64,000 nt of DNA from Terriglobia bacterium. Lineage in GTDB: Bacteria; Acidobacteriota; Terriglobia; UBA7540. The notes under the pieces are model-generated. The model did not search any database. It saw only the letters and a list, made by a program, of their open reading frames with translations, and was not told the DNA's origin. This document shows positions 10,033 through 64,000 of this stretch, piece after piece. The stretch is taken from NCBI GenBank assembly GCA_035712365.1, contig DASTAW010000033.1:62001-126000 (forward strand), in the 5' to 3' direction. The translations under genes were made by a program, and so were the position numbers. Within the stretch, counting starts at the first letter, position 1; every line of letters begins with the position of its first letter.

Positions 10033-12261
10033 CTACCTCCTTGATACTTCCACCACGGCGTTGTAATCCGGCACGCCGCTCTCGTCCAGCCGCCCGGAAG
10101 GGACCAGCGCGTTGCCTTCGGGCCAATGCACCTGCAGGCTTCCAGGCTTAACGCGATCAATCTTCACCCGGCCGCGGAGCCGCCCGTATTCATTTCTCAG
10201 GACCACCCTATCGCCGGCCCGCAGCGCCAGCCGAGCGGCGTCCTCGGCTGCCATCAGGACGTCGTCACGGCGCGCTCCGGTCAGCGGGTCGGCATTATCA
10301 TGGACAATGCTGTTGAATTGCATGCCGCGCCGCGTGCTCACCATGAACTTTCCCTTGGGGACCTGGTCCTGAGGCAAGTCCACGGCTGAAAAATAGCCCT
10401 TGCCGCTCGGCGTCCCAAAGCTATCGGCCAGCAGGCGCGGCCCGCCGTACTGGAAGCTGTCGCCCTTCCGCCTGAGATTACCGATGCCGTGATAGGTGGG
10501 ACAGATGCGATCGATTTCCTCGCGGATATCTGCCGTGTCCTTCCACGGGAAGGCTTTTGCGGCGCTTTCGGGGTCCATATGGCGCGCCAGCAGGACCGGA
10601 ATTTCCCACTCATCGCGCGCCTCACCCGGGCGCGGCCCGGGAATTTCCGGACTGTAGATCACGCGCCGCTCGGTGCTGGTCTCGGTGCCGCCGCCGCGTT
10701 GTTCATACCGGTTGCGCGAGGGCAGCAGCACCACGGTTTCTCCGGGATCGACCAGCATGGTGGGGTTTACCAAGATGTCCTGATGAACGCGCAGCCGCAG
10801 GCGGGCCAGGGCCTCCCGGACGCGCTCCGGCTCCGGCAGAGTGTCCATGAAATTCCCGCCGCTCTGCCACAGCATATCGATCTCGCCCCGCTCGGCGCCC
10901 AGCACCATTTCCGCTGCGCCCATGCCCTTCCAGGCGGGCGGCCGAAAGCCCCAGAGATCTGGGGAAGCAAAACGATCGGCGTTCTCCTCATTCACCGGAA
11001 ATCCCATGACGTAGGCGGAAGGCATGGCGCCCATTTCCGCCCCGCCTTGCACGCCGCTGTGTCCCCGAATGGGCATCAGGCCGGTCTGCGGCCGTCCCAC
11101 GTTTCCGCGCGCCAGTTGCAGATTTACAATGGCGCGCACGTTGTCGCTGCCATAGCGATGCTGCGTAACGCCCATGCTCCAGACGATAATCGCATGCCGG
11201 GCCGTGCCGAAAGCCTGGGCAAAGCGAAGCATGTCCGCCCGCGTCAGCCCGGAGCCGCGTTCCAGATCATCCCAGCGCAGGCCGCGGGTTTTCTTTTCAA
11301 GCGCGCGCCAACCCGTCGTACGTTCGTCAACAAAGTTGCGGTCCACCCAGTCGTTCTCAATCAGCAGCTTGAGCACGCCGTAAAAGAAAGGAATATCACC
11401 GCCGGGCAGGACCTGAAAGAAGTCGTCCGCGAGGCGCGTTCCAAACAGCGCGCTCTCCGTAACCGAGGGAATCCAATATCGCTCCATGCCGGGCTCGCGA
11501 TAGGGATTCACCACAAAAATCCTGGTGCCCGCCTTCTTCGCGTAGTAAAGATACTTGGTAGCCACCGGCTGGTTGTTGGCCACGTTGGTCCCCACAAAAA
11601 CCACCAGGTCGCTGCCAATCCAGTCACTGTAGCTGCACGTGGTGGCGGCGCAGCCCACGGTGGCCTTCAGCGCTGAGGTGCTCGGAGCGTGGCAGATGCG
11701 CGCGCTGGTGTCGATATGGTTGGTCCCGATAAACCGCGCCACTTTCTGGTGCGCGTAATAAGCCTCATTGGTAAGGCCGCGGGAAGTGAGATACCAGGCC
11801 AGGCCGCGCGGATCGGTCTGGCGCAGCTTGCTGGCGATCACCGCCATGGCCTCGTCCCAGGTGACTCGCCGAAAGCCTTTCTCGCCCCGCTGCCGTACCA
11901 TCGGCACGGCCAGCCGCCCCAGGCGCCGCAAATCCTGCTCGCTCTGGTTTTGAAGCGCCCCAACATTTTCCAGCAGGCGCCAGTCCATGGCCGGCATGGT
12001 GTTCAGCCGCAACAACCGCAGCCGCACGGCGCACAGATGGATGCCGCTCAGGGTCCAGTCGCGCATCCCTGTGGTTCCCAGCGCGCAACCGTCGCAGCAG
12101 CCGTCGTTGAGGATCCGCCAGGCGTACGGCAGGCTGGCGCGGTTCTCCCAGATGGCCTCCAGAATGTCCTTGTAGCCGTTCGGATGTTGCTGGTTCAGCC
12201 CGTATGGCACCAGGCTGACCCAATCCTTCGGATTCCAACCCTTCAGACGCTCTCTTCCCAT
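10033..12261 (-). CDS. FdhF/YdeP-type molybdopterin oxidoreductase (formate dehydrogenase-like)
   Basis: A 742-residue DMSO-reductase-family enzyme. An N-terminal Cys group (C55, C56, C59, C77) is placed to bind a 4Fe-4S cluster. Cys190, in ARICHAPSTSALK, occupies the Mo-ligand position that is Sec or Cys in formate dehydrogenases. The central bis-MGD domains (VVFVGTNVANNQP, WSMGVTQHRYGSDNVRAIVNLQLARGN) and the C-terminal MopB domain (PKGKFMVSTRRGMQFNSIVH) are complete. No twin-Arg signal is seen, so it is cytoplasmic. The electron acceptor is unknown, since no iron-sulfur or membrane subunit is adjacent. YdeP-like acid-resistance oxidoreductases belong to the same branch, so formate as substrate is only one option. 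Confidence 0.82.
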   Translation of the reverse strand: MGRERLKGWNPKDWVSLVPYGLNQQHPNGYKDILEAIWENRASLPYAWRILNDGCCDGCALGTTGMRDWTLSGIHLCAVRLRLLRLNTMPAMDWRLLENVGALQNQSEQDLRRLGRLAVPMVRQRGEKGFRRVTWDEAMAVIASKLRQTDPRGLAWYLTSRGLTNEAYYAHQKVARFIGTNHIDTSARICHAPSTSALKATVGCAATTCSYSDWIGSDLVVFVGTNVANNQPVATKYLYYAKKAGTRIFVVNPYREPGMERYWIPSVTESALFGTRLADDFFQVLPGGDIPFFYGVLKLLIENDWVDRNFVDERTTGWRALEKKTRGLRWDDLERGSGLTRADMLRFAQAFGTARHAIIVWSMGVTQHRYGSDNVRAIVNLQLARGNVGRPQTGLMPIRGHSGVQGGAEMGAMPSAYVMGFPVNEENADRFASPDLWGFRPPAWKGMGAAEMVLGAERGEIDMLWQSGGNFMDTLPEPERVREALARLRLRVHQDILVNPTMLVDPGETVVLLPSRNRYEQRGGGTETSTERRVIYSPEIPGPRPGEARDEWEIPVLLARHMDPESAAKAFPWKDTADIREEIDRICPTYHGIGNLRRKGDSFQYGGPRLLADSFGTPSGKGYFSAVDLPQDQVPKGKFMVSTRRGMQFNSIVHDNADPLTGARRDDVLMAAEDAARLALRAGDRVVLRNEYGRLRGRVKIDRVKPGSLQVHWPEGNALVPSGRLDESGVPDYNAVVEVSRR

Positions 12262-32296: not shown

Positions 32297-33319
32297 ATGC
32301 CGCAATCAAAACCGCTTCCGGCTGGAAAACTTCCGCCGCGCCTGCTCGAACAATTGTTGAAATCATGCGCAGCCCCAGCGTCCTCCGGAGTTGTTCTCGG
32401 GCCGCGTTATGGCGAGGACGCAGCGGTGCTCGAGACCAGCGGGAAGCTTCTGGTTGCCAAGACCGATCCCATAACCTTCACGGCTGACCGCATCGGCTGG
32501 TACGCGGTCAACATCAATGCCAACGACCTTGCAACGATGGGCGCGCGCCCGCGGTGGTTCCTCGCCACGTTTCTTTTTCCGGAGAAGAAGACCACGGACG
32601 CCCTGGTCAAGAAAGTTTTTGGTGAAACGTTGAAGGCCTGTCGCGCGCTTGGCATCACGCTGTGCGGCGGTCACACCGAGATCACCATAGGTCTCGACCG
32701 TCCGATTATTGTGGGCCAGATGCTGGGTGAAGTCGAGCTGGACAAACTGGTGCGCAAGGAAAGGCAGAGGCTGGGCGACCAGGTGATCCTCACTAAGGGC
32801 GTGGCCATTGAAGGCACCGCCATCCTGGCGCTAGAGAAAGCGCACGAATTGCGGGGAAGGATTGCGGCAAAGCATCTCAAACACGCGCAGCGATTACTCT
32901 CGAAGCCCGGCATCAGCGTGGTGCGTGACGCACAGGTGGCGGTCGCGCACGGGGAAGTCCACGCGATGCACGACCCCACCGAAGGCGGCTTGCTCACCGG
33001 GCTCGTTGAACTGGCGCGTGCAGGCCGCGTGGGCATGCGAGTGTGGAAAGAAAAGATTCCGGTGCTTCATGAAACGCGGCTGCTGGCGCGCCTGCTCGGG
33101 TTCGATCCGCTCGCTATGCTCGCTTCCGGGGCTTTGCTGATTGTCGCTGGACCTCGCAGCGCGATGCGAATCGTCCAGGCATTACGGCGCAACCGGGTAG
33201 CCGCGCAAATAATAGGCGAGGTTTGCAGGCCAAGCGATGGCATCACGATGGTGGAAAACGGTCGCGCCCGACCGATCAGAGTTCCCGAAAGCGATGAAAT
33301 CGCCCGCCTGCTGGAGTGA
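32297..33319 (+). CDS. AIR synthase-related protein (HypE/ThiL-like)
   Basis: A 340-residue protein of the PurM/HypE/SelD fold. The N-terminal dimerisation strand (YGEDAAVLETSGKLLVAKTDPITFTADRIGWYAVNINANDLATMGARPRWFLATFLFP), GGHTEIT and the phosphate-binding HDPTEGGLLTGLVELA are the family ATP-binding features. It resembles HypE-type hydrogenase maturation proteins but lacks the C-terminal Cys that HypE uses. No other hyp gene is in the window, so the substrate is unknown. It is divergent from kdsB. Confidence 0.78.
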   Translation: MPQSKPLPAGKLPPRLLEQLLKSCAAPASSGVVLGPRYGEDAAVLETSGKLLVAKTDPITFTADRIGWYAVNINANDLATMGARPRWFLATFLFPEKKTTDALVKKVFGETLKACRALGITLCGGHTEITIGLDRPIIVGQMLGEVELDKLVRKERQRLGDQVILTKGVAIEGTAILALEKAHELRGRIAAKHLKHAQRLLSKPGISVVRDAQVAVAHGEVHAMHDPTEGGLLTGLVELARAGRVGMRVWKEKIPVLHETRLLARLLGFDPLAMLASGALLIVAGPRSAMRIVQALRRNRVAAQIIGEVCRPSDGITMVENGRARPIRVPESDEIARLLE

Positions 33320-62142: not shown

Positions 62143-63183
62143 TTAATCCACCCGCAGCAAGGGGGTGGTTTTTTCCACCACTCGGCCCACCTGCCGGGCG
62201 CGAACTCCGCGTTCTGTGAGCTTCTTTACCAGCGCTGCTGAATCGCTTTCGCCTACCACCAGCAGCAGTCCGCCGCTGGTCTGCGGATCGAAAAACAGGT
62301 TGCGGATTTCCTGCGGGACCTTCGGGTCAAACTCGACGCAGGCGCTCACGAACTCGGCGTTTCTTTTCAGCCCACCGGGAAGATAGCCCTGGCGCGAATA
62401 GTCGAGAGCGCCGGGAAGGAACTCGATCTCGGTATGGTCGATCACCATGCTGACCTTGCTGGCCGAGGCCATGGCGTGCAGGTGGCCCAGCAACCCGAAG
62501 CCCGTGATGTCCGTGGCGGCATGCACATCGAATTCGAGGGCCACTTCGCTGCCCACGCGGTTAAGCGTCCGCATCGATTCAACGGAGGCGCTGACTGCGG
62601 CTTCACTCGCTTTCCGCTTTTTCAGCGCCGTGGCGATGATCCCGGTGCCGAGACGCTTGGTGAGGACCAGCCGGTCGCCCGGGCGCGCTCCCCGGTTGGC
62701 CAGCACACGCTTGGGGTCCACCACTCCTGTGACAGCGAATCCGAACTTGATTTCGTCATCCCCGATCGAGTGCCCGCCAATCACCGTGCAGCCCGCCTCC
62801 TGCATCTTGGCCACGCCGCCCTGCAGGATTTGTTCCAGCATGTCCAGGTCGCGGCCCGTGTTTGGGAAACCTACGATCGAAAGCGCGGAAACCGGACGTC
62901 CACCCATGGCGTAAACGTCGCTCAGGGAGTTTGTGGCGGCAATCTGGCCAAACGTCCACGGATCATCCACGATGGGCGTGAAGAAGTCAACCGTCTGCAC
63001 CAGCGCGATGTCAGGTGCGATCAGATACACGCCCGCATCGTCGCCGGTATCGAAGCCGACGAGAACGTTGGGATCAGACTGTTTCGGCAGCCTGGGCAGC
63101 ACCGAGTCCAAAATACTTGGACTCAACTTGGCTGCTCAACCCGCCGCCTTCACCATCGCTGTGAGGCGCTTTCGTTCGTCCAT
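62143..63183 (-). CDS. selD: Selenide, water dikinase with in-frame UGA (selenocysteine)
   Basis: SelD makes selenophosphate from selenide and ATP, the selenium donor for Sec and selenouridine. The frame starts at ATG 63183 and runs MDERKRLTAMVKAAG-UGA-AAKLSPSIL; the TGA is at 63136-63138, codon 16, at the active-site position that is Cys or Sec in this family (GxxxK with following Lys). The rest has DDAGVY, GGHSIGDDEIKFGF, ATDITGFGLLGHLH and FDPQTSGGLL. A hairpin at 63104-63124 fits a bacterial SECIS. Gene callers would start at TTG 63126 and lose the active site. The result is 346 residues with one Sec. Confidence 0.9.
63104..63124 (-). promoter_or_regulatory. SECIS-like hairpin of selD
   Basis: In mRNA sense, GAGTCCAA-GTATT-TTGGACTC is a perfect 8-bp stem with a 5-base loop beginning GT. 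The stem starts 11 bases after the UGA, the spacing known for the apical part of the fdhF SECIS that binds SelB. It lies wholly inside the coding region, as bacterial SECIS do. Confidence 0.8.
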
Positions 63184-63265
63184 AACTGGCATTATAGGAT
63201 GAAGTCCGAGATTGATGTGGGGGTGATGCTTCGCGCGTGCAATTGAGGAAGTGTATACGAATGCC

Positions 63266-64000
63266 TTACGCTATCGAGGCCTGCACTTCCTTAAAGCTCT
63301 GCACAGCGAACTCGAGGTCGTCTCGTGTGTGCGCGGCGGAAATCTGCACGCGGATGCGCGCCTTGCCCTGTGGCACCACGGGATAGGAGAAGCCGACCAC
63401 GTAGATGCCCTTCTGGAGCAGCGCATCGGCCATGCGCGTGGCCTTGGCGGCATCGCCGATCATGATGGGCACAATCGGGTGCTCGCCCGGCACAATAGAG
63501 AACCCCAGCGCCGTCATCCGCTGGCGAAAGAAGCGCGTGTTTTCCATCAATCGCTCGCGCAGCTCCCCTGACCCCTGCAGCAGGTCGAGCACTTTCAGTG
63601 ACGCAGCTACGATGGAGGGTGACACGGAATTGGAAAAAAGGTAAGGCCTCGAGCGCTGGCGCAGCAGTTCGATGATTTCTTTGCGCCCCGTGGTGTAGCC
63701 GCCACTCGCGCCGCCGAGCGCCTTGCCCAGCGTCCCTGTAATGATGTCCACCCGGCCCTCGACGCCGCAATGTTCCGGTGTGCCACGCCCGTGCTCGCCC
63801 ATGAATCCCACGGCGTGCGAATCGTCCACCATCACCAGCGCGCCATACTTTTCAGCGAGATCGCAGATCTCGTCGAGCTTCGCGACGTACCCGTCCATGG
63901 AGAACACGCCGTCCGTCGCCACGAGCGCGTAGCGAGCCTCCGCTTTGGCCTGTTTCAACTTTTCTTCCAGGTCGCTCATGTCGCCATTGCGATAGCGATA
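63266..64000 (-). CDS. kbl: Glycine C-acetyltransferase / 2-amino-3-ketobutyrate CoA ligase (5' partial)
   Basis: A PLP enzyme of the alpha-oxoamine synthase family; it cleaves 2-amino-3-ketobutyrate with CoA to glycine and acetyl-CoA in threonine breakdown. The frame is open to the window end ([15 protein letters not shown]), so about 150 N-terminal residues lie outside. [22 protein letters not shown] and the PLP Lys in [20 protein letters not shown] are visible, as is the C-terminal [20 protein letters not shown]. Other members (BioF, HemA) differ in these parts. Its stop is 83 bases upstream of the selD start on the same strand. Confidence 0.9.

What the first reader, a model, noticed from the sequence alone, without database searches (positions are those of the whole stretch)
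63104..63183. SelD is a selenoprotein hidden by an in-frame UGA
Seen: ATG at 63183 leads through LTAMVKAAG to TGA (63136-63138) and the frame continues as AAKLSPSIL into a complete SelD. The TGA is at the position where SelD has its active Cys or Sec. A perfect 8-bp hairpin with a 5-base loop starting GT begins 11 bases after the TGA, matching the bacterial SECIS layout. Known: selD is a selenoprotein gene in several lineages. Inferred: the organism decodes Sec. Automated annotation would give a SelD without its active site.
Basis: partly seen in the sequence, partly recalled or inferred. Interest (0 to 1): 0.8.

Follow-up and report, generated by a model that had tools for sequence, protein, structure and literature searches.

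The report
Selenocysteine-containing SelD in soil Acidobacteriota
The gene for the enzyme that activates selenium carries an in-frame UGA that this bacterium almost certainly reads as selenocysteine; it is a clear new example of a well-known kind of selenoprotein gene.

Summary
The selD frame (63183-62143, minus strand) is interrupted only by TGA at 63138-63136, which aligns with Cys17 of E. coli SelD; 11 nt later comes a perfect 8-bp hairpin with loop GUAUU. The genome has tRNA-Sec (anticodon UCA), selA and selB above curated cut-offs. Of 39 family genomes 27 have the TGA, 5 have Cys, 3 were not read, 4 lack a clear selD. Over 25 Sec loci, synonymous variation is lowest at the hairpin codons; against a related family one stem pair changes A-U to G-C. 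Five Cys loci form one clade and keep intact or decaying hairpins. What is the selenium for? No selenouridine synthase, YqeB or UGA-bearing formate dehydrogenase was found in this genome, but six more genes have UGA at a redox-active Cys position (four peroxiredoxins, one TlpA/ResA-like, one AhpD-like), so SelD is not the only predicted selenoprotein. Sec-SelD is an established bacterial family, and Acidobacteria were listed with selenoproteins in 2006. A solid, ordinary new member; interest low. Sec insertion itself is inferred, not shown.

The parts
62143..63183 (-). selD coding sequence, 346 aa with one predicted Sec (UGA read through)
63136..63138 (-). UGA, codon 16, predicted Sec codon at the catalytic Cys/Sec position
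63127..63129 (-). codon 19, Lys aligned with Lys20 of E. coli SelD
63104..63124 (-). bacterial SECIS hairpin: 8-bp stem, 5-nt loop GUAUU, 19 nt from UGA to the loop
63125..63135 (-). 11-nt spacer between UGA and the stem
63181..63183 (-). start codon ATG
63191..63196 (-). TATAAT (-10 like) 7 nt before the ATG; kept at 6-10 nt in 23 of 25 Sec-SelD family loci
63266..64000 (-). upstream neighbour, C-terminal part of a glycine C-acetyltransferase-like gene cut by the window end; not part of the system

Best explanation
selD encodes a selenophosphate synthetase whose catalytic residue 16 is selenocysteine. Inferred from the known bacterial pathway: SelB with GTP and Sec-tRNA-Sec binds the hairpin at 63104-63124 just after the UGA, and the ribosome inserts Sec instead of terminating. 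SelD makes selenophosphate from selenide and ATP; SelA uses it to turn Ser-tRNA-Sec into Sec-tRNA-Sec. The enzyme therefore needs its own product to be made. Selenium also goes to at least six further predicted selenoproteins, mostly of peroxiredoxin type. Shown here: the frame, the alignment, the machinery genes, the conservation, the hairpin and the other UGA-bearing genes. Not shown: Sec in the protein, SelB binding, enzyme activity.
For: Machinery in the own genome: tRNA-Sec, selA, selB. TGA in SelD of 27 of 39 family genomes; 5 of 39 read as Cys; 3 of 39 without a stop and not read (G004 in two pieces, G029, G035); 4 of 39 without a strong selD match. Synonymous variation over 25 Sec loci: mean 0.36 over 274 codons, 0.063 in codons 18-26, the lowest of 291 nine-codon windows. 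With no choice by pairing: all six core stem pairs stand in 30 of 30 distinct Sec sequences of this family and family f2 (0 of 2,000 column shuffles reach this), and 87% of pairs stand over all 47 distinct placed Sec sequences (0 of 2,000 shuffles). The Cys loci of the family are one clade among Sec loci and keep remnant hairpins. Six other own-genome genes have UGA at a redox-active Cys position.
Against: No protein or ribosome data. Within the family the six core pairs are nearly invariant, so the family alone gives no covariation test (2,000 of 2,000 shuffles as good); the evidence for pairing comes from few changes (A-U to G-C at one pair, G-U at two), shared by related sequences. Of 25 placed Sec loci outside the family, 14 do not have the hairpin in this register; in all 14 my search found a hairpin of 4-9 pairs elsewhere, weak in L150 (4 pairs). 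The motif search left 12 of 74 SelD loci unplaced. Rfam gave no family match above its cut-off. A 327-aa ORF that starts after the UGA exists. selB was sought only in the own genome.
Confidence: 0.97

Rival explanations
1. The UGA is a real stop and SelD is made from a later start (TTG 63126), without the active-site residue.
For: A 327-aa ORF from TTG 63126 is listed.
Against: The residues just before the UGA (LTxMVKAxG) are kept in all 30 family loci read, TGA or Cys; in the 62 placed SelD loci the codon is TGA, TGC or TGT in each; the eight lowest windows of synonymous change in the gene begin at codons 13-20, around the UGA.
Confidence: 0.01
2. Assembly or sequencing error, or a decayed gene, at 63136-63138.
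For: The window is from a draft genome in 65 contigs.
Against: The same single TGA occurs in 27 of 39 genomes of the family with an otherwise open frame, and in 28 of the 30 best loci in a draw of 396 genomes of the phylum.
Confidence: 0.005
3. UGA is read as another residue (Cys or Trp) because the organism has a changed code.
For: A tRNA with anticodon UCA exists.
Against: That tRNA is tRNA-Sec by covariance model; open frames of the same genome end at TGA, for example L165 and the second gene of L166; the UGA is tied to a hairpin.
Confidence: 0.01
4. SelD is the only selenoprotein, so the Sec machinery serves only itself.
For: No mnmH (0 of 39), no yqeB (0 of 39), no TGA in the one own Fdh-alpha match at E 1e-40.
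Against: Six other own-genome genes have UGA at redox-active Cys positions, and four of them recur with TGA in both other genomes of the genus.
Confidence: 0.01

Closest known systems
Sec-containing SelD (bacterial selenophosphate synthetase), NCBIfam TIGR00476; Zhang et al. 2006 (PMC1794560), Mariotti et al. 2015 (PMC4561486)
   Same: Sec at the single known position, SECIS inside the coding region, selA/selB/selC in the genome; 19% of the SelD genes found in a reference set of 223 genomes carried Sec (PMC4561486 section 4).
   Different: Nothing of substance; Ala in place of the second Cys, shared with Aquifex SelD 2yye.
E. coli SelD (PDB 3u0o)
   Same: Homology at 252.1 bits, query residues 5-336.
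   Different: E. coli has Cys17 where this has Sec16, and Cys19 where this has Ala18.
Cys homologs with remnant bacterial SECIS (PMC1794560, passages and figure 4 legend: FdhA, HesB-like)
   Same: The Cys-SelD clade here keeps an intact (L035, TGT) or decaying hairpin (TGC loci).
   Different: Here in SelD; that paper also counts Sec-to-Cys changes in SelD.

Membership tests
SelD, selenide water dikinase | Profile match above the curated cut-off over nearly full length | tested here: met
   TIGR00476 383.9 bits against 125, profile 1-309 of 311; Pfam AIRS and AIRS_C
SelD, selenide water dikinase | Cys or Sec at the active site followed by the conserved Lys | tested here: met
   U16 on Cys17 and K19 on Lys20 of 3u0o; that these two residues are needed for catalysis is recalled
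SelD, selenide water dikinase | Makes selenophosphate | not testable with these tools
   needs an enzyme assay
Bacterial selenoprotein gene | In-frame UGA aligned with Cys in homologs | tested here: met
Bacterial selenoprotein gene | bSECIS: loop 3-9 nt, stem 4-16 bp, G in the first two loop positions, 16-37 nt from UGA to loop, MFE -7.5 kcal/mol or lower (PMC13188914 figure 2 legend) | tested here: met
   loop 5, stem 8, G first and U second, 19 nt, -10.2 kcal/mol for the bare hairpin; limits applied by hand
Bacterial selenoprotein gene | selA, selB and tRNA-Sec in the genome | tested here: met
Bacterial selenoprotein gene | Sec present in the purified protein | not testable with these tools
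   needs mass spectrometry or 75Se label

The most novel reading that the evidence does not exclude
In this family the selD message is leaderless: TATAAT lies 6-10 nt before the ATG in 23 of 25 Sec-SelD loci, so transcription would start at or next to the ATG, and Sec would be decoded at codon 16 of a message without a ribosome-binding site. Because Sec-SelD also needs its own product to be made, selD would be a self-feeding loop fed by leaderless initiation.
Probability: 0.35. Interest if true: 0.4.

Novelty: new member of a known kind. Interest (0 to 1): 0.2.

Why it matters
It matters mainly for annotation: SelD loses its active site if the gene is called from the first start after the UGA. 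It also points to an Acidobacteriota lineage that keeps Sec decoding without a UGA-bearing formate dehydrogenase, selenouridine synthase or YqeB that I could find in this genome, and spends it on peroxiredoxin-type genes. The single Sec-to-Cys change in one clade of the family, with hairpins from intact to decayed, is a neat natural series for watching a SECIS decay.

Tried and rejected
SelD as sole selenoprotein: suggested by the absence of mnmH, yqeB and a TGA-bearing Fdh-alpha in the own genome, rejected after the PF00578 and PF02627 searches found TGA in other redox genes.

Scans of the window and of own-genome stretches for other UGA-bearing ORFs, by codon score and by hairpin, gave no convincing gene besides SelD. 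Both missed the peroxiredoxin at C20:147761, which lies in L155, and one search did not list SelD either, so they have low sensitivity and I draw no negative conclusion from them.

Not every TGA in those hits is Sec: in G037 C17:22332 (L176) the CxxC is intact and the TGA lies elsewhere; the hairpin of own C9:31599 is not clear.

Rfam on the selD start gave only a chance miRNA match far below its cut-off. A three-row alignment was useless because one row was given on the wrong strand; not used.

A first pairing test used 11 outside loci that I had picked because they pair, which is circular; one search repeats it without that choice and is the one relied on.

A link 'Cys-SelD goes with TGA-bearing Fdh-alpha' (5 of 5 genomes with Cys read, against 3 of 27 with TGA) is not claimed: the Cys loci are one clade and many genomes are partial.

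Full report
Observation. On the minus strand the frame from ATG 63183 runs through TGA at 63138-63136 and on to TAA at 62143. Read through, it is a 346-aa SelD (TIGR00476, 383.9 bits, cut-off 125). The TGA falls on the Cys of E. coli SelD 3u0o and Aquifex SelD 2yye, with the conserved Lys three residues later. The hairpin is as described: 11 nt after the TGA, 8 bp, loop GTATT.

Is it chance? Recoding the 20 codons after the TGA with random synonymous codons gives a Watson-Crick stem this long in the bSECIS position in 31 of 20,000 trials; 13 of 2,539 codon positions in six window genes (selD included) also have such a stem, so the hairpin alone is only suggestive. The 46-nt RNA has z = -4.4 against shuffles. 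The hairpin meets the bSECIS limits that I read in PMC13188914, section 5.

Machinery. The own genome (4.67 Mb in 65 contigs, completeness 98.89) has tRNA-Sec at C20:141469-141559, 68.9 bits, anticodon tca; selA at C29, 580.5 bits; selB at C50, 353.7 bits over model positions 1-579 of 581 (named selB also). With selD on C33 the four genes lie on four contigs. In the family selA is found in 35 of 39 genomes at E 1e-40 and tRNA-Sec in 31 of 39 at E 1e-8; every genome without a match is below 90% complete. The tRNA match of G001 is weak (50.1 bits, at a contig end). selB was not searched beyond the own genome.

Conservation. Of 39 family genomes 27 have SelD with one TGA; five (G001, G005-G008) have a Cys codon that I read; three have no stop but were not read (G004 in two pieces, G029 at 46% identity, G035); four (G009, G014, G024, G027) have only weak matches, best E 1e-8 to 1e-13. 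Over the phylum 237 of 396 drawn genomes match at E 1e-60; of the 30 loci returned, 28 have the TGA and two (L148, L149) do not. The closest named relatives (L051-L054, 67-84% identity) are Acidobacteria and Terriglobia MAGs; at the selD start they equal L023, L025, L049 and L040, so I do not count them as extra genomes.

SECIS under selection. Among 25 Sec-SelD loci of the family, the fraction of sequences not using the commonest synonymous codon averages 0.36 over 274 codons; the lowest of 291 nine-codon windows is codons 18-26 at 0.063, covering the end of the spacer, the loop and most of the stem. Of 28 family Sec loci (three of them the named duplicates), 27 have 8 Watson-Crick pairs of 8 and one has 7. 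Pairing test without choice by pairing: in the family alone the six core pairs are nearly invariant and shuffles say nothing (2,000 of 2,000 as good). In family plus the six placed loci of family f2, 30 distinct sequences, all core pairs stand, with A-U to G-C at pair 19/25 and A-U to G-U at 18/26 and 19/25 (0 of 2,000 shuffles). Over all 47 distinct placed Sec sequences 87% of the pairs stand (0 of 2,000 shuffles; slid partners 0.17-0.56). These sequences are related, so the shuffles are not a probability. Of 25 placed Sec loci outside the family, 11 have all six pairs in this register and 14 do not; in the 14 my search finds a hairpin with a G in the first two loop positions elsewhere, with 4-9 pairs, weak in L150. 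Twelve of 74 loci were not placed by the motif search.

Sec to Cys. In a tree of 37 SelD proteins the five family Cys loci form one clade (support 99/99) among Sec loci; with L055 as a second case the tree needs two changes. L035 (TGT) keeps 8 Watson-Crick pairs of 8, the TGC loci 5-7, and the more distant Cys loci L055, L057, L148 3-6. Such remnants are known: PMC1794560 reports remnant SECIS in Cys homologs and Sec-to-Cys changes in SelD (passages).

What is the selenium for? mnmH/ybbB: 0 of 39. yqeB: 0 of 39. Fdh-alpha matches with TGA: 11 of 39 genomes, fragments counted; seven of them I read (L158-L164) and the UGA lies in CNRTUHAP with a hairpin in the same layout. The own genome has one Fdh-alpha match at E 1e-40, an FdhF/YdeP-type protein without TGA (window 10033-12261). 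AhpC-TSA: 5 of 23 own-genome matches at E 5 contain one TGA; CMD: 1 of 6. Reading them: C20:147761 BCP-type peroxiredoxin TPGU; C41:49932 and C41:50468, a tandem pair (TGGU, TPGU); C9:31599 peroxiredoxin TPVU; C58:133417 TlpA/ResA-like WUGFC; C1:18031 AhpD-like CFYU. For C20, C9 and C1 the U aligns with Cys of a solved homolog; for the tandem pair and the TlpA-like gene the position rests on the motif. The C20, C41 pair and C9 types recur with TGA in G037 and G038; the AhpD type recurs in G037, and G038 has two other CMD genes with TGA; for the TlpA-like gene I saw UGA only in the own genome. G037 and G038 each also have an AhpC-type gene with FTFVU, G037 four genes with a WUPxC motif, and G038 one SHTUPPFR gene, deiodinase-like by recall. 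So at least seven selenoprotein genes are predicted in the own genome, and SelD does not serve only itself.

Promoter. TATAAT lies 6-10 nt before the ATG in 23 of 25 Sec-SelD family loci (not L030, L041); of the five Cys loci L035 has it and the four TGC loci do not. This suggests a leaderless message. Leaderless bacterial genes, also with a -10 region next to the start codon, are in print (PMC3160421, PMC12340547; listing and start of abstract only).

Novelty. [quoted passage not shown] In 2006 Acidobacteria were listed with 3 families and 4 selenoproteins (PMC1794560 table passage). deep-Sep (PMC12013277, passage) lists one Acidobacteriota species with three known selenoprotein genes. The rows listed by my searches (5 of 5 papers; 15 of 103; 20 of 54; 15 of 3,333; 12 of 79) name no paper on a peroxiredoxin-rich selenoproteome in Acidobacteriota; that is a partial look at open-licence papers. 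PMC5029168 was seen in passages and PMC4561486 in passages and section 4. Verdict: real, correctly read, ordinary.

Noticed in passing
63191-63196 (minus strand) and L021-L050: TATAAT 6-10 nt upstream of the selD ATG in 23 of 25 Sec-SelD family loci, although much of the upstream region differs: probable leaderless selD mRNA. The four TGC Cys-SelD loci have neither this box nor an ATG at that place.
   Followed up: partly
L166 (G000 C41:48800-52000), 983-1594 and 1654-2124: Tandem pair of peroxiredoxin genes, each with UGA at the active-site position; the pair recurs in G037 (L171) and G038 (L179).
   Followed up: partly
L182 (G038 C12:7500-12600), TGA at 1271: A gene with the motif SHTUPPFR that resembles deiodinase-like selenoproteins (name by recall), with a G-loop hairpin after the UGA.
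   Followed up: no
L158-L164, Fdh-alpha genes of other family members: UGA in CNRTUHAP, 11-nt spacer and an 8-pair stem with G first in the loop: the same hairpin layout as in selD.
   Followed up: partly
32297-33319 (plus strand): A second AIR-synthase-type protein in the window; best hit HypE at 125.9 bits, below the cut-off of 251.6, next hits SelD and ThiL; identity unclear.
   Followed up: no
10033-12261 (minus strand): FdhF/YdeP family molybdopterin oxidoreductase (TIGR01701, 629.8 bits) without TGA.
   Followed up: no
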